The notes under the pieces were generated by a model that searched no databases, was not told the origin of the DNA, and saw only the letters and a list, made by a program, of their open reading frames with translations. The translations under genes were made by a program, and so were the position numbers. A DNA stretch of 64,000 nt from Ahrensia sp. (GTDB lineage Bacteria > Pseudomonadota > Alphaproteobacteria > Rhizobiales > Rhizobiaceae), in NCBI GenBank assembly GCA_028817895.1, contig JAPPOQ010000015.1, positions 62,001 to 126,000 of the forward strand, written 5' to 3'. Below, one piece after another: positions 4,209-23,231 of this stretch (position 1 is the stretch's first letter; each line of letters opens with the position of its first letter).

Positions 4209-4238
4209 GCGTCACCTATCGTTGCCGGGATGTCCGGA

Positions 4239-5440: not shown

Positions 5441-5585
5441 CTGTGATGTCCGGTTCCGCTCGGCTGGGAAGAAACGATCATGGCCTCAATGCCACGAAGT
5501 GGTAACCACAAAATTGCGGTGGTAATGCGACATCGGTGGCGACAAGGCGTGTCGAACCGGGATCTCAAAACTCTTGGCTACGCCG

Positions 5586-6200
5586 TCACGAATGGGAGAA
5601 AATATCTTCCTCTTCCCAACCAGCCAGATCAAGCAGGCAACGGTCCGGCAAAAAGCTGAAGCAGGCGGCGGCGAGGTCTTCGCGCTCTTCACGTTGCAAG
5701 CGGGCATCGAGCGCATAGCGAAGCCGGTGCAAATACAGCACGTCAGAGGCTGCATAGGCCTGTTGCGCGTCGCTCAATTCTTCAGCCGCCCAATCTGATG
5801 ATTGCTGCTGTTTGGACAGATCAATGCCGATCAGTTCTCGGCAAAGGTCTTTCAAACCATGGCGATCCGTATAGGTGCGGGTCAGGCGCGAGGCGATCTT
5901 TGTGCAATAGACATTGCGCGCCAATGCACCGAACGCATGGTGGAGTACGGCGATGTCGAAGCGACCGAAATGAAACAGTTTCACGATCGAATCATCGGCG
6001 AGCAATTTCTCTATGTTTGGGGCGCTCGTCTGGCCTTTGGCGATCTGCACGATGTCTGCGCTTCCATCTCCGGGAGACAGTTGAACCACGCAGAGCCGGT
6101 CGCGATGCGGATTGAGACCCAACGTCTCCGTGTCGATGGCAACGCTTTCGCCATAGGCGTCGAGATTGGGCAGATCGCCCTTGTGCAGTCTGATCGTCAA
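5586..6200 (-). CDS. Short RNase D-like 3'-5' exonuclease
   Basis: A 204-residue DEDDy exonuclease. The metal ligands are D23 and E25 (AIDTETLGL), D82 (HFGRFD) and D153, with Y149 four residues before D153 (YAASD), giving the DEDDy form. It lacks the HRDC domains of full-length RNase D, as in the short alphaproteobacterial version, and is expected to trim RNA 3' ends, for example tRNA precursors. The best start is a TTG at 6200, with GGAG eight bases upstream and a start-to-motif distance that fits the family. It commonly sits beside lptC in this bacterial order. Confidence 0.9.
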   Translation of the reverse strand: MTIRLHKGDLPNLDAYGESVAIDTETLGLNPHRDRLCVVQLSPGDGSADIVQIAKGQTSAPNIEKLLADDSIVKLFHFGRFDIAVLHHAFGALARNVYCTKIASRLTRTYTDRHGLKDLCRELIGIDLSKQQQSSDWAAEELSDAQQAYAASDVLYLHRLRYALDARLQREEREDLAAACFSFLPDRCLLDLAGWEEEDIFSHS

Positions 6201-6284: not shown

Positions 6285-7379
6285 TCAGCGCACGCGCTCG
6301 CCATCAGCATCGAAGAACACGGCCTTCGCCAGATTGAAGGCCAGACGCGTGGTCTTGCCGGGCTGCACATCCGCGTCGGCGCGGAGCCGCGCCGTCACTT
6401 CCGTACCACCAAGCTTGGTGATGGCGTAAGTGTCGGAACCGGCTGTCTCGACGACTTCAATAACGCAATCCGCCTCCGCAAGCGTGCCGGTGCTGTCGGC
6501 ACTTTCCGGATCAGTAATTGCTTCGGGGCGCAGACCCATCGTGATGGCCTTGTCGGCGGAAGCGCCGCTCAGGGCCGATGTGTTTGAGACTGCGAAGGAC
6601 AGATCCGCCCCATCACCGGTCACCTTCGCCGTCTTGCCGGACACGCTGACCGGAACCATGTTCATGGAAGGCGACCCCATGAATTCAGCGACGAACATAT
6701 TGGCGGGATTGTCGTAAATCTCGGTTGGCGTGCCGAATTGCTGCAAGATGCCATCTTTCAGCACGGCGATTTTCGAGGCCAGCGTCATCGCCTCGATCTG
6801 ATCATGCGTCACATAGACGATCGTCGTGCCCATGCGCTGGTGCAGCCGCTTGATCTCGGTGCGCATGTCGACACGCAATTTCGCATCCAGGTTGGACAAG
6901 GGTTCGTCAAACAGGAACACCTGCGGATCACGCACCAGCGCGCGACCCATCGCCACGCGCTGCCTCTGTCCACCGGAAAGCTGCCCCGGCTTGCGTTTCA
7001 GCAGATGGCCGATTTGCAGCATGTCGGCGACCTGCGTCACCTTGGCGTCACGCTCGGACTTTGGCAGTCCACGGATTTCCATGCCGAAGGCGATGTTTTT
7101 CTCCACGCTCATATTGGGATAGAGCGCGTAGGACTGGAACACCATCGCGATGTCACGCTTCGACGGATGCAGGCCGACGACCGAACGTTCACCGATGCGT
7201 ATGTCGCCACTGGTGACCGGTTCCAGCCCAGCAATCGTGTTTAACAGGGTGGACTTGCCGCAGCCGGATGGGCCGATGAGCACGAGGAAGCCGCCTTCCT
7301 CGATTTCCAGATCGATGCCTTTGAGGACTTCGACACTGCCAAAGCTCTTGCGCAGATTGTCAATTTTGAGAAACGCCAC
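6285..7379 (-). CDS. Carbohydrate ABC transporter ATP-binding protein (UgpC/MsmK type)
   Basis: A 364-residue CUT1-family ATPase. Walker A is GPSGCGKST (36-44), the signature [14 protein letters not shown], Walker [16 protein letters not shown], and the switch histidine lies in VTHDQIEAMT. The last ~120 residues form the OB/TOBE regulatory domain found in MalK/UgpC proteins. It energises the two permeases encoded just upstream in the same operon (gap to the permease stop is four bases). It is the last gene of the minus-strand unit GMC oxidoreductase - binding protein - permease - permease - ATPase. The substrate cannot be told from the ATPase. Confidence 0.92.
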   Translation of the reverse strand: MAFLKIDNLRKSFGSVEVLKGIDLEIEEGGFLVLIGPSGCGKSTLLNTIAGLEPVTSGDIRIGERSVVGLHPSKRDIAMVFQSYALYPNMSVEKNIAFGMEIRGLPKSERDAKVTQVADMLQIGHLLKRKPGQLSGGQRQRVAMGRALVRDPQVFLFDEPLSNLDAKLRVDMRTEIKRLHQRMGTTIVYVTHDQIEAMTLASKIAVLKDGILQQFGTPTEIYDNPANMFVAEFMGSPSMNMVPVSVSGKTAKVTGDGADLSFAVSNTSALSGASADKAITMGLRPEAITDPESADSTGTLAEADCVIEVVETAGSDTYAITKLGGTEVTARLRADADVQPGKTTRLAFNLAKAVFFDADGERVR

Positions 7380-7383
7380 AACT

Positions 7384-8301
7384 TTACCCCTTCACTGCGC
7401 CGGCCATGAGGCCGCGCACGAAATATCGGCCCGATACGACGTAAACGATGAGCGTCGGCAGGGCTGCCAGAATAGCTCCGGCAAAATGGACATTGTATTC
7501 CTTCACGCCGGTGGAGGAGTTCACCAGATTGTTGAGCGCAACCGTCATGGGAATCGAGTCGAAGTCGGCAAAAGACGCGCCGAACAGAAAGTCGTTCCAC
7601 ACATTGGTGAACTGCCAAATCACGGTGACCACGATGATCGGGCCTGACGATGGCAGCAGGATACGGTTGAAAATCTGGAAAAAGGAGGCGCCGTCAATTT
7701 GGGCCGCGCGCACCAGTTCGGTCGGGAAAGCCTGATAGTAGTTGCGGAAAAACAGCGTCGTGAAGCCAAGCCCGTAAACCACATGCACCAGCACCAGGCC
7801 CCATGTGGTTCCCGCAAGGCCCAATATGCCAAGCACACGGGCCATCGGGATGAGCACGATCTGGAATGGAATGAAGCAAGACAGCAGGATCAGTCCGAAG
7901 ACGATGCCATCGCCTTTGAACCGCCATTTCGTGAGCACGTAACCGTTCAGCGCGCCAAGCAGGGTGGAGATGATGACGGCAGGCACCACCATGAGGATCG
8001 AATTCATGAAATAGGGCTGAAGGCCGGTCGGCTGCACTCCGATCTGCGCTGTCGACCAGGCCGACAGCCATGGCGCGATCGTCCATTCGCTGGGCAGGGA
8101 GAGCATATCGCCCTGCCGGATTTCAGACAGCGGCTTGAGCGAATTGACCAGCATCACCCAAAGCGGCAGCAGGTAGTAAATCGCGAAAATGATCAACAGG
8201 GCGTAGAGAAGGACGCGCCCGATGGAAAAGCGGCGGCCCGTGCCGTCCGCTTCCGGCAGGGACGATCGGTCGAGCGCGGTGCTGGCGTTTGGAGCGCTCA
8301 T
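7384..8301 (-). CDS. Carbohydrate ABC transporter permease (MalG type)
   Basis: A 305-residue inner-membrane permease with about six membrane segments and the cytoplasmic EAA coupling loop (ELVRAAQIDGASFFQIFNRILLP) that docks on the ATPase. The first ~25 residues are polar and precede the first membrane helix. It belongs to the CUT1 MalG/UgpE side of the family and pairs with the MalF-like permease, whose stop codon it overlaps by four bases (8298-8301). CUT1 importers carry oligosaccharides, polyols and glycerol derivatives, so a polyhydroxylated substrate is likely but not proven. Confidence 0.9.
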   Translation of the reverse strand: MSAPNASTALDRSSLPEADGTGRRFSIGRVLLYALLIIFAIYYLLPLWVMLVNSLKPLSEIRQGDMLSLPSEWTIAPWLSAWSTAQIGVQPTGLQPYFMNSILMVVPAVIISTLLGALNGYVLTKWRFKGDGIVFGLILLSCFIPFQIVLIPMARVLGILGLAGTTWGLVLVHVVYGLGFTTLFFRNYYQAFPTELVRAAQIDGASFFQIFNRILLPSSGPIIVVTVIWQFTNVWNDFLFGASFADFDSIPMTVALNNLVNSSTGVKEYNVHFAGAILAALPTLIVYVVSGRYFVRGLMAGAVKG

Positions 8302-9173
8302 GATTTTTTCTCCGAACGCAGTTCAGAATAGAGATATGGCACGATGATCGAAAAGATCATGATCAGCATGATCACAGCAGATGAAGCGCCGATCCCCATC
8401 AGGTTTCGCGTGAATGTGTAGGAATACATGAAGGTTGCGGGCAGTTCGGTCGCCTGACCTGGGCCTCCGCCCGTCAGTGCGATCACAAGGTCATAGGCCT
8501 TGATGGCAAGGTGAGCGAGCACAACGAAAGCCGACAGAAACACCGGACGCATCAGCGGAATGATGATGCGTCGATAGATGGTGAAGCCGGAAGCGCCGTC
8601 CATCTGCGCTGCCCGGATAATTTCACTGTCGACCCCACGTAAACCGGCCAGGAACATGGCCATCACGAAGCCCGATGATTGCCACACCGCGGCGATGACG
8701 ACGGTGTAGATCGCAAAGTTGCGATCCTTGATCCAGTTGAACGCAAAGCTCTCCCAACCCCATTGCTGCATGGTGTGTTCAAGCCCGATGCCGGGGTCTA
8801 GAAACCATTTCCATGCTGTGCCGGTGACGATGAAGGACAGCGCCATGGGATAGAGATAGATGGGTCGCAGCACCCCTTCGGCGCGGATTTTCTGATCAAG
8901 CAGGATGGCGACCAGCAGGCCGAGCGCGGTGCAGATGATGATGTAGAGCGCGCCAAAGACCCACAAATTGTTGAGGGCACGCCACCAATGGGGAAGCTTG
9001 AAGAGCCGTTCGTAATTGTCGAGCCCCACAAAGCCGTAAGAGGGAAGCATGCGGCTGTCGGACACAGACAGATAGCCGGTATAGATGATGAAGCCGTAGA
9101 CGAAGAAAAGAACCAGCAGAAAGCTTGGCGCAAGCACAAGCCTGGGCAGCCAGTCCTGGAGACGTTCACTCAC
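8298..9173 (-). CDS. Carbohydrate ABC transporter permease (MalF type)
   Basis: A 291-residue permease with six predicted membrane helices and the EAA loop EIIRAAQMDGASGFTIYRRIIIP near residue 190. It forms a heterodimer with the next gene product. The start at 9173 lies 70 bases after the binding-protein stop, and that gap contains a perfect eight-base-pair stem-loop (9199-9224). No partner domain or fusion is seen, and the length is normal for the family. Confidence 0.9.
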   Translation of the reverse strand: MSERLQDWLPRLVLAPSFLLVLFFVYGFIIYTGYLSVSDSRMLPSYGFVGLDNYERLFKLPHWWRALNNLWVFGALYIIICTALGLLVAILLDQKIRAEGVLRPIYLYPMALSFIVTGTAWKWFLDPGIGLEHTMQQWGWESFAFNWIKDRNFAIYTVVIAAVWQSSGFVMAMFLAGLRGVDSEIIRAAQMDGASGFTIYRRIIIPLMRPVFLSAFVVLAHLAIKAYDLVIALTGGGPGQATELPATFMYSYTFTRNLMGIGASSAVIMLIMIFSIIVPYLYSELRSEKKS

Positions 9174-9198
9174 CGAATTTCTCCCCCCGGAAGACTGA

Positions 9199-9224
9199 AC
9201 GGGGCGACAATCGCGCCGCCCCGT
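9199..9224 (-). promoter_or_regulatory. Intercistronic stem-loop between binding-protein and permease genes
   Basis: A perfect inverted repeat, ACGGGGCG at 9199-9206 and CGCCCCGT at 9217-9224, with a ten-base loop. It lies between the binding-protein stop and the MalF-like permease start. There is no T-tract, so it is more likely an mRNA-stabilising element or partial terminator than a full terminator. The other two importers in this window have a hairpin at the same place. Confidence 0.6.
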
Positions 9225-9243
9225 CAGCAGAAGTTTGCCGCGT

Positions 9244-10485
9244 TTACTTCACCGCGGCAATGGATGCGGCGAGTTCAGCCGGTGCTTCATCAGTGGAAAT
9301 CTCACCGTTGAAGTGACGCGTTACAACGTCATAGAGCGCATTCTTGACCGCAGCCGGAGCAGCGTGGCCATGCGCCATGGAACCGAACAGCGTTCCGCTG
9401 TCATTGGCAGATGCCAGATCGGCCATACCTTTTTTGCCGCAATCGTCAAAGGCTTCATTCGGCACATCGGTGCGCGCGGGAACGGAACCCTTGACCACAT
9501 TGAAAGCCGACTGGAACTTCGGATCCATGATCGAAGCGGCCATGGCTGCTTGCGCTTCCTGACGCTCTTCACCAACGGCGAACATGGCGAACTGGTCGGA
9601 GTTGAACGTCACGGACCCTTGCGTGCCCGGGAAACGAATGCAGACAAAATCATCGCCAGGCTTCTGACCGGCCTTCAGGAATTCACCCTTTGCCCAGTCG
9701 CCCATCATTTGCATGCCGGCCTTGCCTTCGATGACCATGGCTGATGCGAGGTTCCAGTCACGGCCCGAGAAGTTGTCGTCCACATAGGAGCGCAGCTTTT
9801 CCATGCGCGCGAAGGCCTCCTTCATCTGGTCGCCACCAAGTGCAGCTTCGTCCAGATTGATCATCGCCTTCTGGTAGAAGTCGGTGCCGAGCGAGAGAAC
9901 CACCGCGTCGAAGATGGTGGCGTCCTGCCAGGCCTGACCACCATGGGCCAGCGGCGTGATGCCGTTTTCTTTCATCTTGTCGAGAACCGCGACGAGATCT
10001 TCCCACGTTTCGGGTGCCTTGCCGCCAGTTGCATCAAGTGCACTTTTGCTGATCCAGACCCAGTTTGTGGAATGGACGTTGACGGGAGCGGAAATCCACT
10101 TGCCGTCATGCTTTCCGAAAGCCTGCAAAGCAGCCGGAACGACGCTGTTCCAGCCTTCTTTCTCGGCAACGGCGTTTAGATCGGCGAGCTTGCCTTCCTT
10201 GGCCCAGTCGAGAATGTCGAAACCCAGCATCTGAACGGCTGTAGGCGCGTTGCCGGCTGTGACGCGGGCACGCAGAGCCGTCATGGCAGCTTCACCGCCG
10301 CCGCCCGCAACGGGCATGTCGGCCCAGGCTACGCCCTGACCTTCAAGGTCCTTCTTCAAAACGTCCAGAGCGGCGGCTTCACCGCCGGATGTCCACCAGT
10401 GGAGAACCTCCACCTGCTCTTCGGCGAACGCGCCATGCGAAACGCCTGCGGCCAGAGCCGCGCTCAACATCAATCTGCGAAACAT
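9244..10485 (-). CDS. Sugar-type ABC transporter substrate-binding protein
   Basis: A 413-residue periplasmic cluster-B (CUT1) binding protein. Residues 1-21 form a Sec signal peptide ending in SHGAFA, and the mature protein opens with [15 protein letters not shown], the usual beta strand and Trp-rich sugar platform of glycoside-binding proteins. It should capture the substrate of the 6285-9173 transporter. A strong AAGGGAG ribosome-binding site precedes ATG 10485. The gene is 51 bases downstream of the GMC oxidoreductase and probably shares its transcript. Confidence 0.9.
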
Positions 10486-10536
10486 GATTTTCTCCCTTGG
10501 TTTGGTCCGGTAGTCCCGGCCCTGTTTTCGCTTCTT

Positions 10537-12135
10537 TCAGTAGTTTCCGCGCACCAGATCGCTGGCTTTTTCGCCAATCATGATGGTCGCGGCATTTGTG
10601 TTCGATCCGATCAGGCTTGGCATCACGGATGAATCGCAAATTCTGATACGTTGTAATCCGCGAACCCGCAATTGCGGATCAACAACCGCCATTTCATCAA
10701 TGCCCATCTTGCATGTGCAAGTGGGGTGATATGAGGTGCGCCCGAACTGGCGGGCGTAGTCTTCAAAGTCCTTCTGCGTCTTAACACTCCCGCCGGGAAA
10801 GTGCTCCTGTTTGATGTATTTTTGCAAGGCCGGCTGGTTGAAGATGTCGCGACTTATTTTCACACCCTCAACCGAGGTTTTCAGATCGTCCGGCTCGGCC
10901 AAAAAGTTCGGATCGATGATCGGCGTATCTTCAACCTTTGATGACCTCAGACGAACAGTTCCGCGACTTTTGGGACGAACGGTGTAGGAATTGAGCGTGA
11001 TGCCCGATCCGGACGGAACGGTCGGGACACCGGCTTCCGCGCCCGCTCCGGCGAGAAAGTGAAACTGAAGATCGGGGATCGGCTGGCTCTTATCTGCATA
11101 CCAAAATGCGCCGCCCTCGACGACATTTGACGTCACCGGGCCGGATCGAAACAGCGCATATTGCAGCCCGGCCCAAGCGGCCATGTGCCATTTGTTGTAT
11201 TTGTCGAGACTGTCCGGGCCTTTCAGTTCGGCGACGATGTCGATGCCGAAATGATCGTTCAAATTTTCACCGACGCCCGGCAGATCATGGACCACGTCGA
11301 TGCCGTGCTCCCGAAGATGCGCCGCCGGGCCAATGCCGGACAGCATCATGAGTTTCGGTGTGCCGATCGCACCGGAAGTGACCAGGATCTCGCCATCAAC
11401 CATGGCCGTCGTTACAGTGTCTCCCTCGGCATATTCGACGCCGGTTGCGCGGTCTCCTTCAAAAAGGATACGCAGTGTCAGGCACCCCGTCTTGACGGTG
11501 AGGTTGGGGCGCTTCTTGACCGGGTTGAGATAGCCGACTGCTGCGGAGCAGCGACGCGCATTGCGCGTCGTCGTCTGGTAGGCTCCCGCGCCCTCCTGGA
11601 TTTGTCCATTGAAGTCAGGATTATACGGCATTCCCAATTGCTGGCATGACTGGATGAAGGCGCGGGTAACCGGTTGAGGGTCCGGTATGTTGGACACCCC
11701 AAGCGGTCCATCTGTTCCGTGGTCAGCATCGGCCAGAATGGTGTTGCCTTCTGATATCAGGAAATAGGGCTGAACGTCCTTGAACGACCAACCTTCGCAG
11801 CCCTCTTCCTGCGCCCAGCGGTCGTAATCGGCTGGGTTTCCTCGGGTGAAGACCTCGGCATTGATGGATGAACCGCCTCCTATCACCCTGGCCTGAGCGT
11901 AGGGGATCTCGCGATTGTGGGCATGTTTTTGCGGCGCGGTGGTGAGGCCCCATGTCAGTGGGCCGGTTGTCATTTTGGCAAAGCCGACGGGCATGTGGAT
12001 ATACGGGTTGGTGTCGCGTCCACCCGCTTCAAGAAGAAGCACGCGAACGGCTTCATTTTCGCTCAAGCGATTGGCGAGCACGCAACCCGAAGAGCCCCCG
12101 CCGACAATGATGAAATCATAACCCTGCGCGGCCAC
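10537..12135 (-). CDS. GMC-family FAD-dependent alcohol/choline dehydrogenase
   Basis: A 532-residue glucose-methanol-choline oxidoreductase. The FAD-binding motif VGGGSSG is at residues 11-17 (IIVGGGSSGCVLANRL), GMC signature 1 is ARVIGGGSSINAEVFTRG, signature 2 is GAIGTPKLMMLSGIGP, and the catalytic histidine is in SYHPTCTCKMG. It oxidises a primary or secondary alcohol to an aldehyde or ketone. It resembles choline and long-chain alcohol dehydrogenases, but no betaine aldehyde dehydrogenase or BetI-like gene is near, so a choline role is not supported. It is the first gene of the transporter operon, and a TAACC-N3-TGGTT palindrome lies 34 bases upstream of its start. I infer that it acts on the imported compound. 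Confidence 0.88.
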   Translation of the reverse strand: MAAQGYDFIIVGGGSSGCVLANRLSENEAVRVLLLEAGGRDTNPYIHMPVGFAKMTTGPLTWGLTTAPQKHAHNREIPYAQARVIGGGSSINAEVFTRGNPADYDRWAQEEGCEGWSFKDVQPYFLISEGNTILADADHGTDGPLGVSNIPDPQPVTRAFIQSCQQLGMPYNPDFNGQIQEGAGAYQTTTRNARRCSAAVGYLNPVKKRPNLTVKTGCLTLRILFEGDRATGVEYAEGDTVTTAMVDGEILVTSGAIGTPKLMMLSGIGPAAHLREHGIDVVHDLPGVGENLNDHFGIDIVAELKGPDSLDKYNKWHMAAWAGLQYALFRSGPVTSNVVEGGAFWYADKSQPIPDLQFHFLAGAGAEAGVPTVPSGSGITLNSYTVRPKSRGTVRLRSSKVEDTPIIDPNFLAEPDDLKTSVEGVKISRDIFNQPALQKYIKQEHFPGGSVKTQKDFEDYARQFGRTSYHPTCTCKMGIDEMAVVDPQLRVRGLQRIRICDSSVMPSLIGSNTNAATIMIGEKASDLVRGNY

Positions 12136-12168
12136 CGGTTTTCATTCCACTCAATAGGATTGTCTAAG

Positions 12169-12181
12169 TAACCGGATGGTT
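12169..12181. promoter_or_regulatory. Palindromic operator candidate before the GMC oxidoreductase
   Basis: The 13-mer TAACC GGA TGGTT has inverted arms AACC/GGTT and ends 34 bases from the GMC start codon. A second copy, TAACC AGT TGGTT at 12336-12348, differs only in the three central bases and lies 35 bases from the start of the divergent CoA-transferase gene. The symmetry suggests that one dimeric regulator controls both operons. The regulator is unknown; no regulator gene adjoins this region. Confidence 0.55.
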
Positions 12182-12302
12182 CACTAGAGGATGCGATGTC
12201 GAATGTCGACTCCTGTCACAGCTTGCTCAGTGGGACAATGTGCAGCGGCGCGCCATTTTGACAGCGACTTTGAAGCTGGGTAAGCGCGACGATACAATGC
12301 TC

Positions 12303-12331
12303 TTGCGACCTCGTTGCGCAGTGGGCATATT
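12303..12331 (+). promoter_or_regulatory. Candidate sigma-70 promoter for the CoA-transferase operon
   Basis: A -35-like TTGCGA (12303-12308), a 17-base spacer and a -10-like CATATT (12326-12331) would place the transcription start near 12338, inside the palindrome at 12336-12348, as expected for repression. A second candidate, TTGACA at 12258-12263 with TAAGCG 17 bases later, lies further upstream. Neither can be confirmed from sequence. Confidence 0.35.
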
Positions 12332-12335
12332 CAAG

Positions 12336-12348
12336 TAACCAGTTGGTT
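12336..12348. promoter_or_regulatory. Palindromic operator candidate before the CoA-transferase
   Basis: TAACC AGT TGGTT; with the next base it forms the perfect palindrome TAACCA-GT-TGGTTA (12336-12349). It lies 35 bases upstream of ATG 12383 and overlaps the expected start of the TTGCGA/CATATT promoter. It is the partner of the copy at 12169-12181. Confidence 0.6.
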
Positions 12349-12382
12349 ATTTAAGCCGTCAGCCAGAGGCAAGCGCTAAGCA

Positions 12383-13954
12383 ATGAGCAAAGTTGTCACC
12401 GCGCGTGAAGCGGTCGATTTGATTTCCGATGGCGATGTGGTCGCTGTGAATTCGTCCAGCGGTCTGTGCTGCCCTGATGCTGTTCTTGAAGCATTGGGGG
12501 AACGGTTCGACGAAACCCAGTCGCCGCGCGAGATAACAACCATCCATCCAATTGCAGCTGGAGACTTTTTCGGCACCAAGGGCGTTGATCACATCGCCAA
12601 GCCCGGTCTTCTTGCCCGCATCATTGGCGGGTCTTACCCGTCCGGGCCGACAAAGGCTGAACCACCAAAAATCTGGCAGATGGTCACGGGCAATGCGATC
12701 CCGGCCTATAATGTGCCGTCGGGTATTGTGTTTGACATGCTTCGAGAAGCGGCCTCAAAGCGCCCCGGCGTGCTGACAAAAGTTGGTCTGGGAACCTTTG
12801 TCGATCCCGATCAGGACGGCTGCGCCATGAACGATATGGGTCGTGAAACCCCAATCGTTCGCCACGAGACTTTCGATGGAGACGACTGGCTTTATTTTCC
12901 TGCGATCACGCCCAATGTCGCCATCATTCGCGCAACAACCTCAGATCAGCGCGGGAATCTGAGTTTCGAACATGAGGGTGCGTATCTGGGTGCCATGGAG
13001 ATGGCGCTGGCGGCGCACAACACCGGTGGCAAGGTTATCGCGCAGGTGCGGCGCGTTGCACAGAACGGTTCCATCCGCCCGCATGATGTGCGCGTGCCCG
13101 GCATTCTTGTCGATGCGGTGGTGGAAGCGCCTGACATGCTTCAGACCACGGCGACGCCCTATGACCCTGCTATATCTGGCGAACTCATTCGTCCGCTGGA
13201 CACATTCTCCATTCCCGAATTCGGCGTCGGCAAAGTGATTGCTCGGCGGGTCGCGCAGGAATTGCAGGACGGTTGGGCGGTCAATATCGGCTTTGGCATT
13301 TCGGCCAATGTGCCGCGTATCTTCATTGAAGAGGGCAAGCATGGCGCCGTCACCTGGGTGATCGAACAGGGCGCCGTTGGCGGTGTGCCGCTTCTCGACT
13401 TTAAGTTTGGTTGCGCGGCCAATGCCGAAGCCTTCGTCGCGTCACCGCATCAGTTCAGCTACTTCCAGGCGGCAGGTTTCGACGCCTCATTGCTGTCGTT
13501 TCTGGAGATAGGCGCAGACGGTTCCGTCAATGTATCGCGATTGGCTGCGACACCGCATCGTACCGCTGGTGCTGGCGGATTTGTCGACATAACAACGCGG
13601 GCCAAGCGCATCATTTTTTCAGGCAACTTCAATGCGGGGGCGAAAATGCGCATTGAAGACGGCACATTGCATATCGATCAGGAAGGAAAGATCGCCAAGA
13701 TCGTGCCGCAGGTGGACCAGATCAGTTTCTCCGGTAAACGCGCCATCGAGCAAGGGCAGGACATCACCTATGTGACGGAACGTTGCGTGATGAAGCTGAC
13801 CGCAGATGGCTTGCAGGTTGTCGAAATTGCGCCGGGCATTGATCTCGAACGCGACATCCTCGCGCAGGTGAAAGCGCCGCTGAATGTTGCCGACAACATG
13901 CGTGTGATGGATGAAGCGCTGTTTCGACCGGATCTCATCGGGCTGCTTGCGTGA
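12383..13954 (+). CDS. Acyl-CoA:acetate/3-ketoacid CoA-transferase (YdiF/propionate CoA-transferase type)
   Basis: A 523-residue single-chain family I CoA-transferase in which the alpha and beta halves are fused. The N-terminal half has VTAREAVDLISDGDVVAVN and the CoA-binding region. The catalytic glutamate, which forms the glutamyl-CoA thioester, is probably E328 in VIEQGAVGG. It would move CoA from a donor such as acetyl- or succinyl-CoA to a short-chain or hydroxy acid. Its stop overlaps the start of the enoyl-CoA hydratase gene, so the two should act in sequence on the same CoA ester. It is the first gene of a five-gene plus-strand operon divergent from the GMC/ABC operon. Confidence 0.88.
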   Translation: MSKVVTAREAVDLISDGDVVAVNSSSGLCCPDAVLEALGERFDETQSPREITTIHPIAAGDFFGTKGVDHIAKPGLLARIIGGSYPSGPTKAEPPKIWQMVTGNAIPAYNVPSGIVFDMLREAASKRPGVLTKVGLGTFVDPDQDGCAMNDMGRETPIVRHETFDGDDWLYFPAITPNVAIIRATTSDQRGNLSFEHEGAYLGAMEMALAAHNTGGKVIAQVRRVAQNGSIRPHDVRVPGILVDAVVEAPDMLQTTATPYDPAISGELIRPLDTFSIPEFGVGKVIARRVAQELQDGWAVNIGFGISANVPRIFIEEGKHGAVTWVIEQGAVGGVPLLDFKFGCAANAEAFVASPHQFSYFQAAGFDASLLSFLEIGADGSVNVSRLAATPHRTAGAGGFVDITTRAKRIIFSGNFNAGAKMRIEDGTLHIDQEGKIAKIVPQVDQISFSGKRAIEQGQDITYVTERCVMKLTADGLQVVEIAPGIDLERDILAQVKAPLNVADNMRVMDEALFRPDLIGLLA

Positions 13955-14730
13955 TGGACCTCATTCGCCTCGACAAAACCGGGCCTGTCGCTGAGCTGGC
14001 GATCAACCGGCCACAAAAGCGCAATGCGCTGGACGCGAATATGGTCGATACGCTGCATGAGCATGTCGTCGCGATTGACCGCGACGATGATATTCATGTG
14101 GTGATACTGACCGGAACCGAGGGCAATTTTTGCGCAGGTGGCGATATTGCGGCCTGGAGCGGCGAAAGCCCCGATGCCTTTGGCCAGCATTGGGTGCGCA
14201 ACGGTCACATTGCTTTCGATGCATTGGCGCGGTTGCGACAGCCGGTCATTGCGGCCCTGAATGGCCACACGCTTGGCGGCGGCCTGGAACTGGCGGCTTG
14301 TGCAGATTATCGGATCGCCGAACGCCACATCAAACTTGGGCAGCCGGAAACGGGCCTGGGTATCATTCCCGGCTGGTCCGGCACACAGCGCGCTGTTCAC
14401 AGATTTGGAGCGCAGATCGTGCGTCGGATGGCCGTCTTTGGCGAGGTCTTCACGGCTGAAGAGGCCCTGGCACACGGTTTGGTGGATCATGTCGTGGACG
14501 CCGGAACCAGTTTTGAGGCCGCCCATGAGCTGGCAAAAAGGGTTTTGTCGCGCGCGCCGCTTGCCACCAAGCTCGCCAAAATGATGATCAATTCTGCCGA
14601 TGGCGAAGAGCAGGGCAGGGTGGTTGAGGCTCTTGCAGGTAGTGTCGCAGCGGCTAATGAGGAGTTGCGGGAAGGGTTGCGGGCCTTTCGTGAGAAGCGG
14701 GCTCCAAACTTCTTCGGAGAGACTCAGTGA
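13954..14730 (+). CDS. Enoyl-CoA hydratase/isomerase (crotonase family)
   Basis: A 258-residue crotonase-fold protein. The oxyanion-hole segments are NRPQKRNALDA with CAGGDIAAW, and GHTLGGGLELAACADYRIA. Both acid/base glutamates of true hydratases appear to be present: one in GGLELAACAD and one in LGQPETGLGIIPGWSGTQ. This supports hydration of a double bond in an acyl-CoA rather than a hydrolase or decarboxylase variant. The ATG at 13954 overlaps the CoA-transferase stop (TGATG); a GTG one codon earlier is possible. The stop overlaps the SDR start by four bases, indicating tight coupling. Confidence 0.88.
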   Translation: MDLIRLDKTGPVAELAINRPQKRNALDANMVDTLHEHVVAIDRDDDIHVVILTGTEGNFCAGGDIAAWSGESPDAFGQHWVRNGHIAFDALARLRQPVIAALNGHTLGGGLELAACADYRIAERHIKLGQPETGLGIIPGWSGTQRAVHRFGAQIVRRMAVFGEVFTAEEALAHGLVDHVVDAGTSFEAAHELAKRVLSRAPLATKLAKMMINSADGEEQGRVVEALAGSVAAANEELREGLRAFREKRAPNFFGETQ

Positions 14731-15497
14731 GCGGCCTTGTCGTCCTTGTTACCGGGTCGAGCCGTGGTATCGGCTATGGCGCGGCGCGAGCTCTGGCCGA
14801 ACGTGGATTTGCCGTGGCGCTGAACGGTCCGCAGGACGATGCCGAACTGCGTCAGGCCGTGACCAGCTTGCGCGAAACGGGGGCGACGGTAGTCAGCGCG
14901 CCTTTTGATGTCGCCGATTTGGAGGCGCATGATATGGCGCTGGGACGCATCGAATCCGAGCTCGGACCGCTTACGACGCTCGTCAACAATGCCGGTGTCG
15001 GGGTGATGAAACGCGGTGACCCGCTGGAGGTGAGCGAGGAAAGCTGGGATCGATGCTTCACCGTCAATGCGAAAGCCATGTTCTTTCTGTGTCAGGCTTT
15101 CGCAAGGCGTTTGCTTGAACGCGGACTCAGTCAGGGTCAGTTTCATTCGATCATCAATGTAACCTCATCGAATGCCCGAGCCGTCGCGGTTCCTCGTGCC
15201 GAATATTGCGCGTCCAAAGCGGCGGCAGCCATGGTGAGCCAGGTCTTTGCGGCGCGCCTGGGTGTGGAGGGTGTAGCGGTTTACGATGTTCAGCCGGGGC
15301 TGATCCGCACCGACATGACAGCGCCCGTCATCGAGCAATATCAACAACGGGCCGAGGATGGGTTGACCCTGATGCCACGTGTCGGCACGCCCGATGATAT
15401 GGGCGCCATTATCGCGACGCTCGCCAGCGGCGATCTGCCATACACGACGGGTCAGGTGATTTCCGCCGATGGTGGGCTGTTGGTGCCGCGGTTTTAA
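14727..15497 (+). CDS. Short-chain dehydrogenase/reductase (FabG-like)
   Basis: A 256-residue classical SDR. The cofactor loop is TGSSRGIG (residues ~9-16), NNAG is present (VNNAGVGV), the catalytic Ser lies in NVTSSNA, and the Tyr-Lys pair is YCASK. The ending (ADGGLLVPRF) is normal. It starts at GTG 14727 after GGAGA and overlaps the hydratase gene. After hydration by the preceding enzyme, the 3-hydroxyacyl-CoA product would be a logical substrate for an NAD(P)-linked dehydrogenase, but many SDRs act on sugars and the substrate is not determined. Confidence 0.88.
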   Translation: MSGLVVLVTGSSRGIGYGAARALAERGFAVALNGPQDDAELRQAVTSLRETGATVVSAPFDVADLEAHDMALGRIESELGPLTTLVNNAGVGVMKRGDPLEVSEESWDRCFTVNAKAMFFLCQAFARRLLERGLSQGQFHSIINVTSSNARAVAVPRAEYCASKAAAAMVSQVFAARLGVEGVAVYDVQPGLIRTDMTAPVIEQYQQRAEDGLTLMPRVGTPDDMGAIIATLASGDLPYTTGQVISADGGLLVPRF

Positions 15498-15511
15498 TCT
15501 GGACAGCAACT

Positions 15512-16663
15512 ATGAAAGTTACACTCCCCGATGAGAACGGACATCGCGAAGCCTATCGGTTGAAGGGCACACCGGTTGTTGGCGAGCCACTTGCTGCCAA
15601 CGCCAAGCGCGTCGTGTTTTCCGCCGCTCACGTTGTCTCGGACCCCTTCACCACCTCCGACCCGTCCGGCCCTGCCGTCGTCGACTGGGAAGCGACGATG
15701 ATCTTTCGCCACCACCTGGCCGAACTTGGCCTTGGAATAGCCGAGGCGATGGACACCGCGCAGCGCGGAATGGGTCTCGACTGGGATGGCGCGCTGGAAC
15801 TGATCCGCCGCACCCGGGCAGAGCTTCCCGATGCGCTCGTGTTCAACGGATGCGGCACGGACCATCTCGACCCGACAGAGACGCGCTCGCTTGATGATGT
15901 GCGCCGGGCCTATCTGGAGCAGATCGAGGCCATTCAGGCGCTTGATGGGCGGCTGATCCTCATGGCGAGCCGTGCGTTGGCGCGCGTTGCGCAATCCGCA
16001 GATGACTATATCGCCGTTTATCGTGATGTTCTTTCGGCCTGTGACGAGCCGGTTATCCTGCACTGGCTTGGCGAGATGTTCGATCCTGCGCTCTCCGGCT
16101 ATTGGGGAGCCGATAGCTTCGAGGAAGCACTCGAAACGGCGCTTGCCGTTATCGAAGACAGCCGGAACAAGGTGGACGGCATCAAGATTTCGCTCCTCGA
16201 CAAGGAGAAGGAAATCATCATGCGGAGGCGCTTGCCCGACGGCGTGCGCATGTATACGGGCGACGATTTCAACTATCCCGAACTGATCGCGGGGGATGAG
16301 CAGGGTTTCTCGCATGCCTTGCTCGGCATTTTTGATCCGCTTGCCGCGTCCTGCGCCAAGGCGGTCAATCTCCTGTCCGAAGGTGATGTGGAAGGCTTTC
16401 GCGCGATCCTTGATCCAACGGTGCCGCTCGCCCGGCATTTGTTTCGTGCGCCGACGCAATATTACAAGACGGGTGTGGTATTTCTCGCCTGGCTCAACGG
16501 CTTTCAGTCGCATTTCATCATGCTTGGTGGCGCGCAGGCGATGCGCCCGCTGCCCTATTTTGTCGAGACGTTCAAACTGGCTGATCAGGCTGGCGTGTTG
16601 CGCGACCCCGATCTGGCCTGCCAACGCATGCGGCAATTGTTGGCCGTTTACGGCGCGGTTTGA
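15512..16663 (+). CDS. Dihydrodipicolinate synthase-like aldolase (DUF993 family)
   Basis: A 383-residue protein that I place in the DUF993 branch of the class I aldolase/DHDPS superfamily. K225 in VDGIKISLL sits where the Schiff-base lysine of this superfamily lies (GIK), followed by YTGDDF, which resembles the conserved GDD stretch. It is longer than DHDPS (~290). It is expected to cleave or form a carbon-carbon bond of a 2-oxo acid or keto sugar; the true reaction is unknown. It follows the SDR by 14 bases and ends 17 bases before the TIM-barrel isomerase, a pairing often seen in rhizobial sugar loci. Confidence 0.8.
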   Translation: MKVTLPDENGHREAYRLKGTPVVGEPLAANAKRVVFSAAHVVSDPFTTSDPSGPAVVDWEATMIFRHHLAELGLGIAEAMDTAQRGMGLDWDGALELIRRTRAELPDALVFNGCGTDHLDPTETRSLDDVRRAYLEQIEAIQALDGRLILMASRALARVAQSADDYIAVYRDVLSACDEPVILHWLGEMFDPALSGYWGADSFEEALETALAVIEDSRNKVDGIKISLLDKEKEIIMRRRLPDGVRMYTGDDFNYPELIAGDEQGFSHALLGIFDPLAASCAKAVNLLSEGDVEGFRAILDPTVPLARHLFRAPTQYYKTGVVFLAWLNGFQSHFIMLGGAQAMRPLPYFVETFKLADQAGVLRDPDLACQRMRQLLAVYGAV

Positions 16664-16679
16664 TGCGCGATTTGCCTTG

Positions 16680-17540
16680 ATGCGTGACTTTTCAAACGAC
16701 CATTCCGCCCTCACTCTCAATACGGCAACGCTTGGCCACAATCTGGACGGCTATGGTGCCGGCTGGCCCGTTGAACGCATGATCGACGCCTGCACCGAAC
16801 GCGGGCTTGGCGGTATTGTTTTCTGGCGTCGCGAGATCGGAAATCGAGCTGTCGAAATCGGCGAAAGGGTTCGCGCCAGCGGGATGCAGGTTGTGGGACT
16901 GTGCCGGACGCCCTTTCTGGTGGGACCTCTGGCACCACCCACGCGTCAGCAAGTCATGGATGACTTTCATGCCTCGATTGACATGGCGGCAGGCTTGCAG
17001 GCGCCGGTGCTCACCATTGTCGTTGGAGGCGTGATCGAAGGCTCGCATTCGATGACAGACAGTCTGAAGACTGTGGCAGACATCGTTGCGGAGACTTTGC
17101 CCTATGCCGCAAAGGCCGGTGTCAAGCTCGCGCTTGAGCCGCTTAACCCGGTCTATGGCGGCAACCGGTCCTGTCTGGTGTCGGTTCGGGACGCTGTCGA
17201 TATGTGCGAAGCGATCGACGACGACCATCTGGGTATTGCCGTGGATGTCTATCACGTCTGGTGGGACACGTCGCTGGAGGCGGAACTGAAGCGCACCGGG
17301 CCGAAACGCATTCTTGGCTATCATTTGTGCGACTGGCTCGCAGACACGACCGATGTGCTGCTCGATCGCGGCATGATGGGCGACGGTGTCGCCGACCTGA
17401 AGGCGATCCGAAAAGCTGTCGAGGATGCTGGTTATGTGGGGCCGTGCGAAGTTGAAATCTTCTCCGCCAATGACTGGTGGAAACGCGATCCGGGCAATGT
17501 GCTCGATGTGATGGTGGAGCGTTTTCGCAGCGTTTGCTGA
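16680..17540 (+). CDS. Sugar phosphate isomerase/epimerase (xylose isomerase-like TIM barrel)
   Basis: A 286-residue AP-endonuclease-2-type TIM barrel. The divalent-metal ligands are visible: E153 (LALEPLNP), D189 and H192 (AVDVYHVWWD) and E259 (CEVEIF). Such enzymes isomerise or epimerise ketoses or inosose-like compounds, free or phosphorylated. ATG 16680 was chosen because the frame upstream overlaps the DUF993 gene and family similarity begins at ALTLNTATLGHN. It is the last gene of the operon, and its stop directly adjoins the stop of the convergent Rieske oxygenase gene. Confidence 0.82.
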   Translation: MRDFSNDHSALTLNTATLGHNLDGYGAGWPVERMIDACTERGLGGIVFWRREIGNRAVEIGERVRASGMQVVGLCRTPFLVGPLAPPTRQQVMDDFHASIDMAAGLQAPVLTIVVGGVIEGSHSMTDSLKTVADIVAETLPYAAKAGVKLALEPLNPVYGGNRSCLVSVRDAVDMCEAIDDDHLGIAVDVYHVWWDTSLEAELKRTGPKRILGYHLCDWLADTTDVLLDRGMMGDGVADLKAIRKAVEDAGYVGPCEVEIFSANDWWKRDPGNVLDVMVERFRSVC

Positions 17541-18704
17541 TCAGGCGGGTCCGCTTGCACGCAAATGTTCGTCAACCGTTCGGTTGAACAAATCGAGCGC
17601 GCCCTCATAGCGGCCGAAGGTGAGAACATCATTGACGCCAAGGTCGAGTCCGGCCTGAATTTTCTCACCAAGCTCAAAGTCTTCGGCCAGAGTTTTGACG
17701 GTGAGCGCATGGTTCTTGTCCCAATAACTTTGCTGGTTTTCCGTAAGCGCCTCGTTCTGTTTTGGGCGCAGCGTCACGCAACGAATGCGAGTTTGTGAAA
17801 CGGTTTCGGGGGCGAATTGAATGAGCACGACATGGTCAGACTGCACCAGCCATGCGGAATTTGGAAACAGCGTGTAGAGCACATTTGCATGATCGCGAAT
17901 GCGCCATTGTTTGCGCGGTATCTCAACGAGATCATCGACGCTGGTGCGGGCCAGAATGGACCGAATATGCGGCCCGAAAGCGCGATAGGTGGACAGGTTG
18001 TCATGGAACAGCGCGCCGATGGTTTTCGCATGTGCGACGCGGAAGTGATAGGATTCAAGCCCGCCTTCGACGACGATTTTCCAATTGCAATTCCACACGC
18101 GCTCATGGACGGCATGAACGGTTAAATCGCCCATCTGAAGCCAGTTCAGATCATCTGCCAGTTCGGCGATATGGTTTGAGAGCGCCTCATCGTCGTTCCC
18201 GTCGCCATCCAATCGGACCCACAGCCAACCTTGGGATTCCTTCAGCGCAATGCGCTTCAAGCCGTAGTCACCCTTGTCGAGATCGGGGAAGCCCTGATCC
18301 TTGTGCGGTATCGCGATCAGCCGTCCCGTATTGTCCCAGGTCCAGGCATGATAGGGGCAACTGAAACGGTGCTTGCAGCCCTCTTCGGCCTCGACCAGCC
18401 GCGCGCCGCGGTGGCGGCACACATTGAAGAAGGCATGGGCCTCGCCGCTGCGGTCGCGCGTGAGCAGGATCGGCGCTCCGCAGATGTCGCGGCTCAAAAA
18501 CCCGCCATCTTCGACCAGTTCGCTGGAATGTGCGATCAGAAGCGGTTGTTTGCGAAAGATCTGCGCACGCTCATCGGAAAAGCGCTGCTCGTCCAGATAG
18601 CGGTTGACGGGCGAATGCGTCACGGTCTCGTCGAGATAGGCGGACCGCTCGCGGCGCAGCCCCAAAATCTCATCGAGCAGTTCGACTTGCGTTTCGTGAT
18701 CCAC
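17541..18704 (-). CDS. Rieske [2Fe-2S] ring-hydroxylating-type oxygenase alpha subunit
   Basis: A 387-residue oxygenase. The Rieske ligands are CRH and CPYH (C-x-H-x17-C-x2-H), followed by the catalytic domain with the 2-His facial triad in LESYHFRVAH and a likely Asp ligand in LGVNDVLTFG. The residue that bridges electron transfer to the mononuclear iron is Glu (LESYH) rather than the usual Asp, as in the carnitine oxygenase CntA group, which acts on quaternary amines. No ferredoxin or reductase gene is adjacent, so electrons must come from a partner encoded elsewhere. The start is a GTG without a clear ribosome-binding site. It is divergent from the LacI regulator and convergent with the isomerase gene. 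Confidence 0.87.
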   Translation of the reverse strand: MDHETQVELLDEILGLRRERSAYLDETVTHSPVNRYLDEQRFSDERAQIFRKQPLLIAHSSELVEDGGFLSRDICGAPILLTRDRSGEAHAFFNVCRHRGARLVEAEEGCKHRFSCPYHAWTWDNTGRLIAIPHKDQGFPDLDKGDYGLKRIALKESQGWLWVRLDGDGNDDEALSNHIAELADDLNWLQMGDLTVHAVHERVWNCNWKIVVEGGLESYHFRVAHAKTIGALFHDNLSTYRAFGPHIRSILARTSVDDLVEIPRKQWRIRDHANVLYTLFPNSAWLVQSDHVVLIQFAPETVSQTRIRCVTLRPKQNEALTENQQSYWDKNHALTVKTLAEDFELGEKIQAGLDLGVNDVLTFGRYEGALDLFNRTVDEHLRASGPA

Positions 18705-18892: not shown

Positions 18893-19927
18893 GTGTCGGA
18901 CTTGAAGAAAATCCGCAATATGGAAGAGTTCGCCGCGGTCAGCGGCATTTCACGCCCCACCGTTTCCAAGTTCTTTCATGACCCGGCCAGTGTGAGGCCA
19001 TCCACCCGCCACCGGATCGAAGAAGCGCTGGACCGCTACGACTATCGGCCCAACATTTATGCGGTCAATCAGAACCGCCAACTCACCAAGACAATCGGCG
19101 TGGTGGTGCCTTATCTGGCCGATCCGTTTTTTGCCGAGATCGCTCGCAAGATCGAGGGGCGCTGCATCGAGGCAGGGTTTTCGCCTTCGCTGTTCAGTTC
19201 ACACGGTCAGGTCGAACTGGAAGTGGAGATACTGGATACTCTACGTTCCATGAAACCGGCTGGCGTTTTGCTGGCGCCACTGGGACGCTCGTCAGACAAG
19301 AACGCTATCGAGCGCTTTTGCAAGGATGTGCCGACCGTTTTGTTCGACAGCAACATTGCGGGCATGGGGGAAGCCTTTGTCGGCTCCGACAATTTCAGCT
19401 TCGTGTCTCAAAGTGTCGAATATCTGTGCCGAACCGGTGAACCACCCTGTTTTTTCGAGATGCGCGATCCCGCCAATCCGAATGCGCACCGGCGTCGCAC
19501 GGCTTACATCGATACGATGGAGGCGCTCTGTCATGTGCCCATCGTGGTTAAGATCGACGGGAAGGGCTGGAACTTCGAGGAGATCGGCTATCAGGGCGCG
19601 CTTGAGGCGTTGAGCGAACGCAAGCTCGTCACCGATACCGTTTTGTGCAGCAATGATCGTTTGGCGATAGGCTTCCTGGCAGCCTGCTACGAAAAGGGCA
19701 TCCGTGTCGGAAAAGGCGATGGATGCGCTTTGCGCGTGGCCGGTCATGATGACCATCCTTTCTCGCGCTTCACCTGTCCGTCGCTGACGACGGTGGCCCA
19801 CAATTATGATCTGGTCTCCAGCCAGGGCGTGAAAACGGTCATTCGCCTGATGGAGAGCGGCGGGCGCTTCGGCAAGCGCACGGAGGCCGTCTTCCCGGCC
19901 AATCTGGTGTTGCGCCACTCGGCTTGA
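18893..19927 (+). CDS. LacI-family transcriptional regulator
   Basis: A 344-residue regulator. The N-terminal helix-turn-helix reads EEFAAVSGISRPTVSKFF, followed by the hinge helix region (RHRIEEALDRYDYRPN) and a periplasmic-binding-protein-like effector domain from about residue 60 (IGVVVPYLADPFF). It starts at GTG 18893 after GGGAGATGAGAGG. It stands directly upstream of the polyol operon and divergent from the Rieske oxygenase gene, so polyol-responsive repression of smoEFGK is the simplest role. A matching inverted repeat lies at 19970-19993. Confidence 0.92.
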   Translation: MSDLKKIRNMEEFAAVSGISRPTVSKFFHDPASVRPSTRHRIEEALDRYDYRPNIYAVNQNRQLTKTIGVVVPYLADPFFAEIARKIEGRCIEAGFSPSLFSSHGQVELEVEILDTLRSMKPAGVLLAPLGRSSDKNAIERFCKDVPTVLFDSNIAGMGEAFVGSDNFSFVSQSVEYLCRTGEPPCFFEMRDPANPNAHRRRTAYIDTMEALCHVPIVVKIDGKGWNFEEIGYQGALEALSERKLVTDTVLCSNDRLAIGFLAACYEKGIRVGKGDGCALRVAGHDDHPFSRFTCPSLTTVAHNYDLVSSQGVKTVIRLMESGGRFGKRTEAVFPANLVLRHSA

Positions 19928-19969
19928 CACGGTGGCCAAATTCGGTGTCGCGCAACAGGTTTTGCACAC

Positions 19970-19993
19970 GAAACTTTGCGCGCGTAAAATTTC
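19970..19993. promoter_or_regulatory. Candidate LacI-type operator upstream of the polyol operon
   Basis: The inverted repeat GAAACTTT (19970-19977) - eight GC-rich bases - AAAATTTC (19986-19993) has one mismatch between its arms, and the CpG-rich centre is typical of LacI-family sites. It ends one base before the -35 element at 19995, and the LacI gene is the immediate upstream neighbour. Confidence 0.5.
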
Positions 19994-19994
19994 C

Positions 19995-20023
19995 TTGACG
20001 CCGCTTTTGCCTTCGGGCTAGCT
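19995..20023 (+). promoter_or_regulatory. Candidate promoter of the smo operon
   Basis: TTGACG (19995-20000), a 17-base spacer and CTAGCT (20018-20023), about 46 bases before the start codon of the binding-protein gene. The -35 box is near consensus; the -10 box is weak, as would suit an activated or regulated promoter. Confidence 0.45.
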
Positions 20024-20068
20024 TGAGGAAGCTTCAATCGCGAAGCCTGAAACACCTCTGGGAGGAAA

Positions 20069-21388: not shown

Positions 21389-21412
21389 GCCGGGGCTCTG
21401 ACAACACGTTTT

Positions 21413-21435
21413 GGGGGGCGGTCTCGCCGCCCTCC
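21413..21435 (+). promoter_or_regulatory. Intercistronic stem-loop after smoE
   Basis: GGGCGG (21416-21421) pairs with CCGCCC (21427-21432) around a five-base loop, and the stem extends outward by two G-C pairs and one G-T pair to 21413-21435. It lies between the binding-protein stop (21388) and the permease start (21500). There is no T-tract. Confidence 0.6.
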
Positions 21436-22378: not shown

Positions 22379-22388
22379 GGAGAGAACC

Positions 22389-23219: not shown

Positions 23220-23231
23220 GGAGCAGAAGCT

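What the first reader, a model, noticed from the sequence alone, without database searches (positions are those of the whole stretch)
6285..18704. Uncharacterised divergent catabolic locus joining a sugar importer to CoA-ester chemistry, an aldolase and a Rieske oxygenase
Seen: GMC alcohol oxidoreductase plus a five-component CUT1 importer on one side; a CoA-transferase, enoyl-CoA hydratase, SDR, DUF993 aldolase and xylose-isomerase-like TIM barrel on the other, all overlapping or within 17 bases; and a Rieske oxygenase converging. Known: each family has separate roles. Inference: they degrade one polyhydroxylated or methylated compound by oxidation, CoA activation, hydration, oxidation and C-C cleavage. 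No sugar kinase is present. The set does not match a pathway I can name and is my best candidate for an undescribed system.
Basis: partly seen in the sequence, partly recalled or inferred. Interest (0 to 1): 0.75.

Follow-up and report, generated by a model that had tools for sequence, protein, structure and literature searches.

The report
Undescribed sugar-like catabolic regulon with DUF993
These genes are part of a real, widely shared and probably jointly controlled set for using a still unknown sugar-like compound through coenzyme-A chemistry and a protein family of unknown function (DUF993); the neighbouring Rieske oxygenase is probably a bystander.

Summary
The genes are as described, except that the importer has four genes and the Rieske gene does not belong. 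GMC, CoA-transferase, enoyl-CoA hydratase, SDR, DUF993 and an isomerase-like gene recur together: of 35 fetched loci with DUF993 at 65% identity or more, SDR is in 33, the isomerase-like gene in 33, CoA-transferase in 26, GMC in 25, hydratase in 19, Rieske in 0. The 247-bp divergent gap holds two copies of a palindrome found 47 times in 31 of 96 related loci; 300 permuted controls average 0.3, at most 4. In this genome the four sites with up to two mismatches all border this gene set and lead to a TetR regulator, acyl-CoA dehydrogenase, aldo/keto reductases, alcohol dehydrogenase, MaoC hydratase, a second GMC and further sugar importers on other contigs. So the window holds part of a split regulon. 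Importer similarity suggests a glucose-like substrate; most likely it is oxidised to an acid, activated with CoA and cleaved, giving a C3 unit that enters as glycerate. Substrate and step order are inferred. DUF993 has a DHDPS-like fold; my searches found no described function.

The parts
6285..7379 (-). ABC importer ATPase (UgpC/MalK type)
   Evidence: Pfam ABC_tran, OB_MalK; NCBIfam UgpC subfamily 459 bits, cut-off 432
7384..8301 (-). CUT1 importer permease
   Evidence: Pfam BPD_transp_1
8298..9173 (-). CUT1 importer permease
   Evidence: Pfam BPD_transp_1
9244..10485 (-). Solute-binding protein, glucose-type subgroup
   Evidence: Pfam SBP_bac_1; PDB 4r2b E 2.3e-194, 2b3b 'glucose-binding protein' E 2.4e-37
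10537..12135 (-). GMC oxidoreductase, choline-dehydrogenase-like but below the choline dehydrogenase cut-offs
   Evidence: relative in 25 of 35 near loci
12166..12185 (.). Operator copy on the GMC side, 30 bp before the GMC start codon
   Evidence: 3 mismatches to AAGTAACCNNNTGGTTACTT
12333..12352 (.). Operator copy on the CoA-transferase side, 30 bp before its start codon
   Evidence: 1 mismatch
12383..13954 (+). Family I CoA-transferase (YdiF/FadX-like, fused)
   Evidence: Glu328 conserved in 31 aligned
13951..14730 (+). Enoyl-CoA hydratase
   Evidence: Glu113 and Glu133 conserved in 17 aligned
14727..15497 (+). SDR dehydrogenase (PRK12745 type)
   Evidence: NCBIfam 332.5 bits, cut-off 250
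15512..16663 (+). DUF993 protein, DHDPS-like TIM barrel
   Evidence: Pfam PF06187 E 1.1e-178; model and fold search
16680..17540 (+). Xylose-isomerase-like TIM barrel (AP_endonuc_2)
   Evidence: PDB 3ju2 (SMc04130), 3qc0; relative in 33 of 35 near loci

Best explanation
The two divergent operons are part of one TetR-controlled catabolic regulon for a glucose-like sugar or polyol. Shown by sequence: the conserved gene set, the shared palindrome, and further genes under it in the same genome (C1: MaoC hydratase, aldo/keto reductase, alcohol dehydrogenase, RbsABC-type importer, TetR, second GMC, cupin; C19: acyl-CoA dehydrogenase followed by a CUT1-type binding protein and permeases, and a second aldo/keto reductase). 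Inferred mechanism: the compound enters unphosphorylated; a CH2OH is oxidised by GMC, alcohol and aldehyde dehydrogenases to a carboxylate; the CoA-transferase makes the CoA ester; acyl-CoA dehydrogenase and the hydratases introduce, hydrate or eliminate across a double bond; the SDR makes a ketone; DUF993 breaks a C-C bond through a Schiff base on Lys225; the isomerase-like protein and the aldo/keto reductases help turn the C3 piece into glycerate, which relatives phosphorylate with an operon-encoded glycerate kinase. The TetR protein represses these promoters until an intermediate binds it. The Rieske gene is not part of it.
For: Co-occurrence in 35 near loci and annotated fuller operons. 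Operator: 47 sites in 31 of 96 loci, 300 permuted half-sites mean 0.3, maximum 4. Own genome: four sites with up to 2 mismatches, reversed-pattern control 0, all bordering this gene set. TetR relative (56% identical over residues 19-222 of the Caballeronia protein) between two of the sites. Same-genus genome with the set contiguous. Conserved catalytic residues in transferase, hydratase and isomerase-like protein. DHDPS-like fold with invariant Lys225. Binding protein of glucose type. LacI-type operons that join this importer type, CoA-transferase, hydratase, aldehyde dehydrogenase, GMC, SDR, DUF993 and glycerate kinase.
Against: No substrate, step order or activity is shown. The operator is not universal: S. 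meliloti pSymA loci (L111, L112) have no site with up to 3 mismatches and a LysR neighbour, LacI-type loci have none, Gfo-type loci few (Gfo_a 7 of 40). The GMC-side copy in the window has 3 mismatches, a level at which the reversed control also gives hits (1 and 4 strand hits against 5 and 4). No aldehyde dehydrogenase or glycerate kinase was found in the stretches examined in this genome; I did not search for them elsewhere in it. Binding-protein relatives at 70-77% also sit beside AGE epimerases, so the importer may simply carry a hexose. DUF993 lacks the usual Tyr and has no detectable profile match to DHDPS.
Confidence: 0.55

Rival explanations
1. Same regulon, other step order: DUF993 and the isomerase-like protein split the sugar-like compound first, and CoA-transferase, acyl-CoA dehydrogenase, hydratase and SDR then beta-oxidise the short acid that is released.
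For: DUF993 and the isomerase-like gene occur without CoA enzymes in Gfo/Idh-type loci, so their substrate need not be a CoA ester; the CoA-transferase resembles short-chain acid enzymes.
Against: Alcohol and aldehyde dehydrogenases travel with the CoA genes, which fits making an acid before CoA transfer; no thiolase is listed in the annotated operons.
Confidence: 0.25
2. Two functionally separate operons share a gap: a glucose importer with a GMC oxidase, and an acid-degrading CoA operon.
For: The window-type binding protein is at 50% identity or more in only 4 of 96 DUF993 loci; relatives occur alone, with AGE epimerase or, at 53%, with glucokinase.
Against: GMC is in 25 of 35 near loci; window-type importers sit inside DUF993/CoA operons in Microvirga, Peteryoungia and Rhizobium; both operons carry an operator copy.
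Confidence: 0.12
3. The Rieske oxygenase starts the pathway by demethylating or hydroxylating the substrate.
For: It ends one base after the operon on the other strand; similarity to glycine betaine and carnitine monooxygenases over part of its length.
Against: No relative in 96 related loci; best relatives 36% identical; opposite strand and no operator copy before it.
Confidence: 0.05

Closest known systems
S. meliloti chromosomal DUF993 group (SMc04130, SMc04132; structures 3ju2 and 4dnh) and the annotated S. meliloti Ak57 locus
   Same: DUF993 and isomerase-like protein encoded near each other; sugar-type ABC importer and TetR neighbour in Ak57
   Different: The Ak57 locus has Gfo/Idh dehydrogenases and a mandelate-racemase-like gene instead of the CoA enzymes; function also unassigned in anything I found
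S. meliloti 1021 pSymA locus, about 767.8-775.8 kb and beyond (L111)
   Same: GMC, CoA-transferase, hydratase, DUF993, isomerase-like gene at up to 75% identity; adds acyl-CoA dehydrogenase, aldo/keto reductases, glycerate kinase, ETF and RbsABC-type importer
   Different: LysR neighbour, no operator site with up to 3 mismatches, no window-type importer in the stretch
Cyclohexanecarboxylate-CoA oxidation (acyl-CoA dehydrogenase, hydratase, SDR; recalled)
   Same: Same order of enzyme types on an acyl-CoA
   Different: Sugar importers, GMC and DUF993 instead of ligase and ring hydrolase; its acyl-CoA dehydrogenase models score below cut-off (303 against 650 and 215 against 575)
Oxidative deoxyribonate catabolism (recalled)
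   Same: Acid oxidised to a 3-keto acid, cleaved, C3 unit ending as glycerate
   Different: That route uses a beta-keto acid cleavage enzyme; none is in the window locus, DUF993 is there instead
Glucose ABC importers of Pseudomonas type (5dvf, 8hqq; glucose ligand recalled)
   Same: Gene order and full-length binding-protein similarity
   Different: Tied here to GMC and CoA genes, no glucokinase in the locus; ligand untested

Membership tests
DHDPS / N-acetylneuraminate lyase superfamily (DUF993 protein) | TIM-barrel fold of the family | tested here: met
   Model pLDDT 91; after 4dnh the listed matches are DHDPS-type structures, query TM 0.55-0.65
DHDPS / N-acetylneuraminate lyase superfamily (DUF993 protein) | Schiff-base lysine on the sixth barrel strand | tested here: met
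   Lys225 invariant in 41 aligned, in strand 221-227; position of the DHDPS lysine recalled; activity untested
DHDPS / N-acetylneuraminate lyase superfamily (DUF993 protein) | Tyr on the fifth strand | tested here: not met
   His184 invariant there in 41 aligned
DHDPS / N-acetylneuraminate lyase superfamily (DUF993 protein) | Detectable sequence-profile similarity | tested here: not met
   PF00701 finds two other genes in this genome, not this one; hhalign finds no match, with a shallow two-sequence DHDPS profile
Choline dehydrogenase BetA (GMC) | Curated model cut-off | tested here: not met
   497.6 bits against 732.1; PRK02106 576.4 against 605
CUT1 glucose importer | Binding protein, two permeases, ATPase, full-length similarity to glucose-type binding proteins | tested here: met
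CUT1 glucose importer | Binds glucose | not testable with these tools
   No ligand data; pocket residues not examined with coordinates
Beta-oxidation module | Hydratase with both catalytic glutamates | tested here: met
   Glu113 and Glu133 conserved in 17 aligned; roles recalled
Beta-oxidation module | Thiolase in the operon | tested here: not met
   None in the window locus nor listed in annotated relatives
TetR-controlled regulon | Shared palindrome at the promoters and a cognate regulator gene in the genome | tested here: met
   binding itself not testable here
Beta-keto acid cleavage (deoxyribonate-type) pathway | DUF849 cleavage enzyme in the locus | tested here: not met
   No such Pfam match among the genes of the locus
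Rieske oxygenase as pathway member | Conserved linkage to the gene set | tested here: not met
   0 of 96 loci

The most novel reading that the evidence does not exclude
A CoA-ester route into a sugar ring: a glucose-like compound that cannot be used through its anomeric carbon (for example a 1,5-anhydrohexitol) is oxidised at C6 and turned into a CoA ester so that the hydratase can eliminate across the ring; the ring opens to a 2-keto-3-deoxy hexonate, which DUF993 cleaves to pyruvate and glyceraldehyde, and the latter goes on as glycerate. DUF993 would be a new type of lyase, and the regulon a CoA-dependent sugar-ring pathway of a kind I do not know to be described.
Probability: 0.12. Interest if true: 0.82.

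Novelty: new variant of a known kind. Interest (0 to 1): 0.55.

Why it matters
A family with a solved structure but no function that I could find (DUF993; in 36 of 398 sampled genomes of the phylum) gets a defined setting: a conserved enzyme set, a predicted operator and a candidate regulator gene, with a related locus on pSymA of the laboratory strain S. meliloti 1021. The substrate question becomes directly testable. If sugar-like compounds are catabolised as CoA esters here, that would be an uncommon logic beside the usual phosphorylation routes.

Tried and rejected
Loose palindrome AACCNNNTGGTT: at background in this genome (23 strand hits, control 25); only the extended form separates. 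In 121 family genomes the 2-mismatch form is not diagnostic by itself: hits in 18 genomes, with reversed-pattern control hits in many. Rieske as member: rejected. Sorbitol/mannitol-type locus 18893-26490 as part of the unit: its LacI and mannitol dehydrogenase have no relative at 50% in the 96 loci, and it carries L-iditol and mannitol dehydrogenase signatures. A carnitine/betaine route (acyl-CoA dehydrogenase, hydratase and ETF recall it): set aside because the importers are sugar types. Recurrent unlabelled genes in 50 CoA-type loci: none in 4 or more loci at 150 aa, at most 5 loci at 120 aa, that cluster looking like a counter-frame artefact. hhalign of DUF993 with DHDPS: no match. Structure library pdb_via: not available. 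Literature by locus tag, PDB code, Pfam number and product names: nothing on function (one search gave only a listing off the point); pSymA tags were guessed from position, so a miss there means little. Step order and substrate were not settled.
Full report
What is there. ORF and family scans confirm two divergent operons. Minus strand: GMC oxidoreductase (10537-12135), solute-binding protein, two permeases, ATPase (down to 6285). Plus strand: CoA-transferase, enoyl-CoA hydratase, SDR, DUF993 and a xylose-isomerase-like protein (12383-17540), overlapping or at most 16 bp apart. The importer has four genes, not five. The isomerase-like ORF probably starts at 16680, not 16296. The Rieske gene (17541-18704) converges on the operon; the next locus (18893-26490) is a separate sorbitol/mannitol-type set.

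Conservation. In the 35 of 96 loci whose DUF993 is at least 65% identical to the window's, relatives at 50% identity or more were found for SDR in 33, the isomerase-like gene in 33, CoA-transferase in 26, GMC in 25, hydratase in 19, window-type binding protein in 1, Rieske in 0. In the 61 others: GMC 9, CoA-transferase 3, binding protein 3, hydratase 2, SDR 1, isomerase-like 0, Rieske 0. Several loci are cut by contig ends, and more distant forms of these genes exist in the second group; some loci carry a MaoC hydratase instead of the enoyl-CoA hydratase. Fuller operons add alcohol and aldehyde dehydrogenase, two aldo/keto reductases, acyl-CoA dehydrogenase, ETF, glycerate kinase or a Dabb protein, and RbsABC- or CUT1-type importers.

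Three settings of DUF993. (A) CoA type, as here. (B) Gfo/Idh dehydrogenase, DUF993 and isomerase-like gene, often with a TetR neighbour and other transporters, without CoA enzymes in the annotated examples. (C) LacI-controlled operons with Gfo/Idh, CoA-transferase, hydratase, aldehyde dehydrogenase, a window-type importer, GMC genes, SDR, DUF993 and glycerate kinase, without a listed isomerase-like gene (Microvirga and Peteryoungia; in Rhizobium SL42 the incomplete plasmid gene table shows no CoA-transferase). On a quick tree of 87 DUF993 proteins, A (47 rows, in which L064, L096 and L100 look like type C) and B (31 rows) need 2 changes between them; with the 9 remaining rows counted, A needs 6 and B 4 changes, shuffled means 28.9 and 25.6.

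Regulation. The 247-bp divergent gap holds two palindromes, 12166-12185 and 12333-12352, each 30 bp before a start codon. The symmetric 20-mer AAGTAACCANNTGGTTACTT with up to 3 mismatches occurs 47 times in 31 of 96 loci; 300 permuted half-sites give mean 0.3, maximum 4. With up to 4 mismatches it lies near the start of acyl-CoA dehydrogenase in 25 of 35, aldo/keto reductase 2 in 14 of 19, aldo/keto reductase 1 in 10 of 19, CoA-transferase in 12 of 31 and its distant form in 6 of 10, TetR_C in 8 of 16, RbsB in 2 of 6, Gfo_a in 7 of 40, TetR_S in 2 of 29, GMC in 2 of 33, ALDH in 1 of 17, hydratase 0 of 14, SDR 0 of 32, DUF993 0 of 84, isomerase-like 0 of 67. Support in type B is therefore weak; the type-C loci checked have none, and the S. 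meliloti pSymA loci L111 and L112 have none with up to 3 mismatches. The loci are related to one another, so sites are not independent events.

The rest of the regulon. In the window's own genome the pattern with up to 2 mismatches gives four sites on both strands, reversed-pattern control none; with 3 mismatches the GMC-side window copy is added and the control gives 1 and 4 strand hits against 5 and 4. Two further sites are on contig C1 (560, 10921) and one on C19 (99735). Around them: a MaoC-like hydratase, aldo/keto reductase 1, IolM-like alcohol dehydrogenase, RbsABC-type importer, a TetR protein 56% identical to the Caballeronia one, a second GMC (about 51% identical to the window's), a cupin; and acyl-CoA dehydrogenase, followed by a CUT1-type binding protein, two permease-like genes and a SnoaL-like gene, divergent from aldo/keto reductase 2. 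The site at C1:10921 also lies before a hydantoinase-like operon that may be unrelated. A same-genus genome (G513, the reverse complement of record JABSRX010000154) has aldehyde dehydrogenase, GMC, CoA-transferase, hydratases, acyl-CoA dehydrogenase, SDR, DUF993 and isomerase-like gene on one 11.4-kb contig. So this genome carries a split version. DUF993 is in 3 of 15 genus genomes, one of them (G512) in a type-B setting.

Enzymes. The CoA-transferase keeps Glu328, the hydratase Glu113 and Glu133, the isomerase-like protein Glu153, Asp189, His215 and Glu259 (roles recalled). The DUF993 model (pLDDT 91) matches 4dnh, S. meliloti SMc04132, at 59% identity and then DHDPS structures at 12-17%. Lys225 on the sixth barrel strand and the GDD after the seventh fit a Schiff-base lyase; invariant His184 stands where DHDPS has Tyr, and profile comparison with two DHDPS proteins of this genome finds nothing. 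I therefore call it DHDPS-like by fold, not a family member. The binding protein aligns over its whole length with glucose-type binding proteins (that 4r2b, 5dvf and 8hqq bind glucose is recalled), but relatives also sit beside AGE epimerases or alone and, at 53%, beside glucokinase.

Mechanism. Most likely: import, oxidation of CH2OH to an acid, CoA transfer, desaturation, hydration or elimination, oxidation, C-C cleavage by DUF993, C3 unit to glycerate. Gene set and operator are shown by sequence; every catalytic step, the order, the regulator's action and the substrate are inferred. The main rival reverses the order.

Literature. Searches by DUF993, Pfam and PDB numbers, S. meliloti tags and product names found no function (open-licence PMC only). 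I read passages only: of PMC12542648, where SMc04132, SMc04133, SMc04135, SMc04138 and SMc04139 stand in a table in the section on PhaR and gene expression, and of PMC11387232, where SMc04134 is a transcription factor in a predicted network. Other pathway comparisons are recalled.

Noticed in passing
window 18893-26490: Separate polyol locus: LacI regulator, CUT1 importer, L-iditol 2-dehydrogenase-type SDR (above its curated cut-off) and mannitol-dehydrogenase-type gene.
   Followed up: partly
window 17541-18704: Orphan Rieske oxygenase without a near relative: best 36% identity in 121 family genomes and in plasmids.
   Followed up: yes
window 131-6200: Housekeeping block: PTS EIIA, ribosome hibernation factor, RpoN, LptB/A/C-like genes, RNase-D-like exonuclease, so the accessory locus sits beside core chromosome genes.
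   Followed up: no
window 61302-61660: ARAGORN reports a tmRNA marked with an asterisk, tag ANDNYAEARLAA.
   Followed up: no
L143:11211-16793: Hydantoinase A/B-like pair, aminotransferase and arylmalonate-decarboxylase-like gene next to an operator site at C1:10921; relation to the regulon unclear.
   Followed up: no
L144:4040-5092: SnoaL-like gene with two matched stretches downstream of the acyl-CoA dehydrogenase and importer genes.
   Followed up: no
L126:11998-13185: A distant DUF993 (45% identity) stands beside a type I polyketide synthase gene on a Streptomyces plasmid.
   Followed up: no
L044:950-15955: A contig filed under the actinobacterium Enemella evansiae carries the CoA-type set at 75-89% identity to alphaproteobacterial references: contamination or recent transfer.
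   Followed up: no
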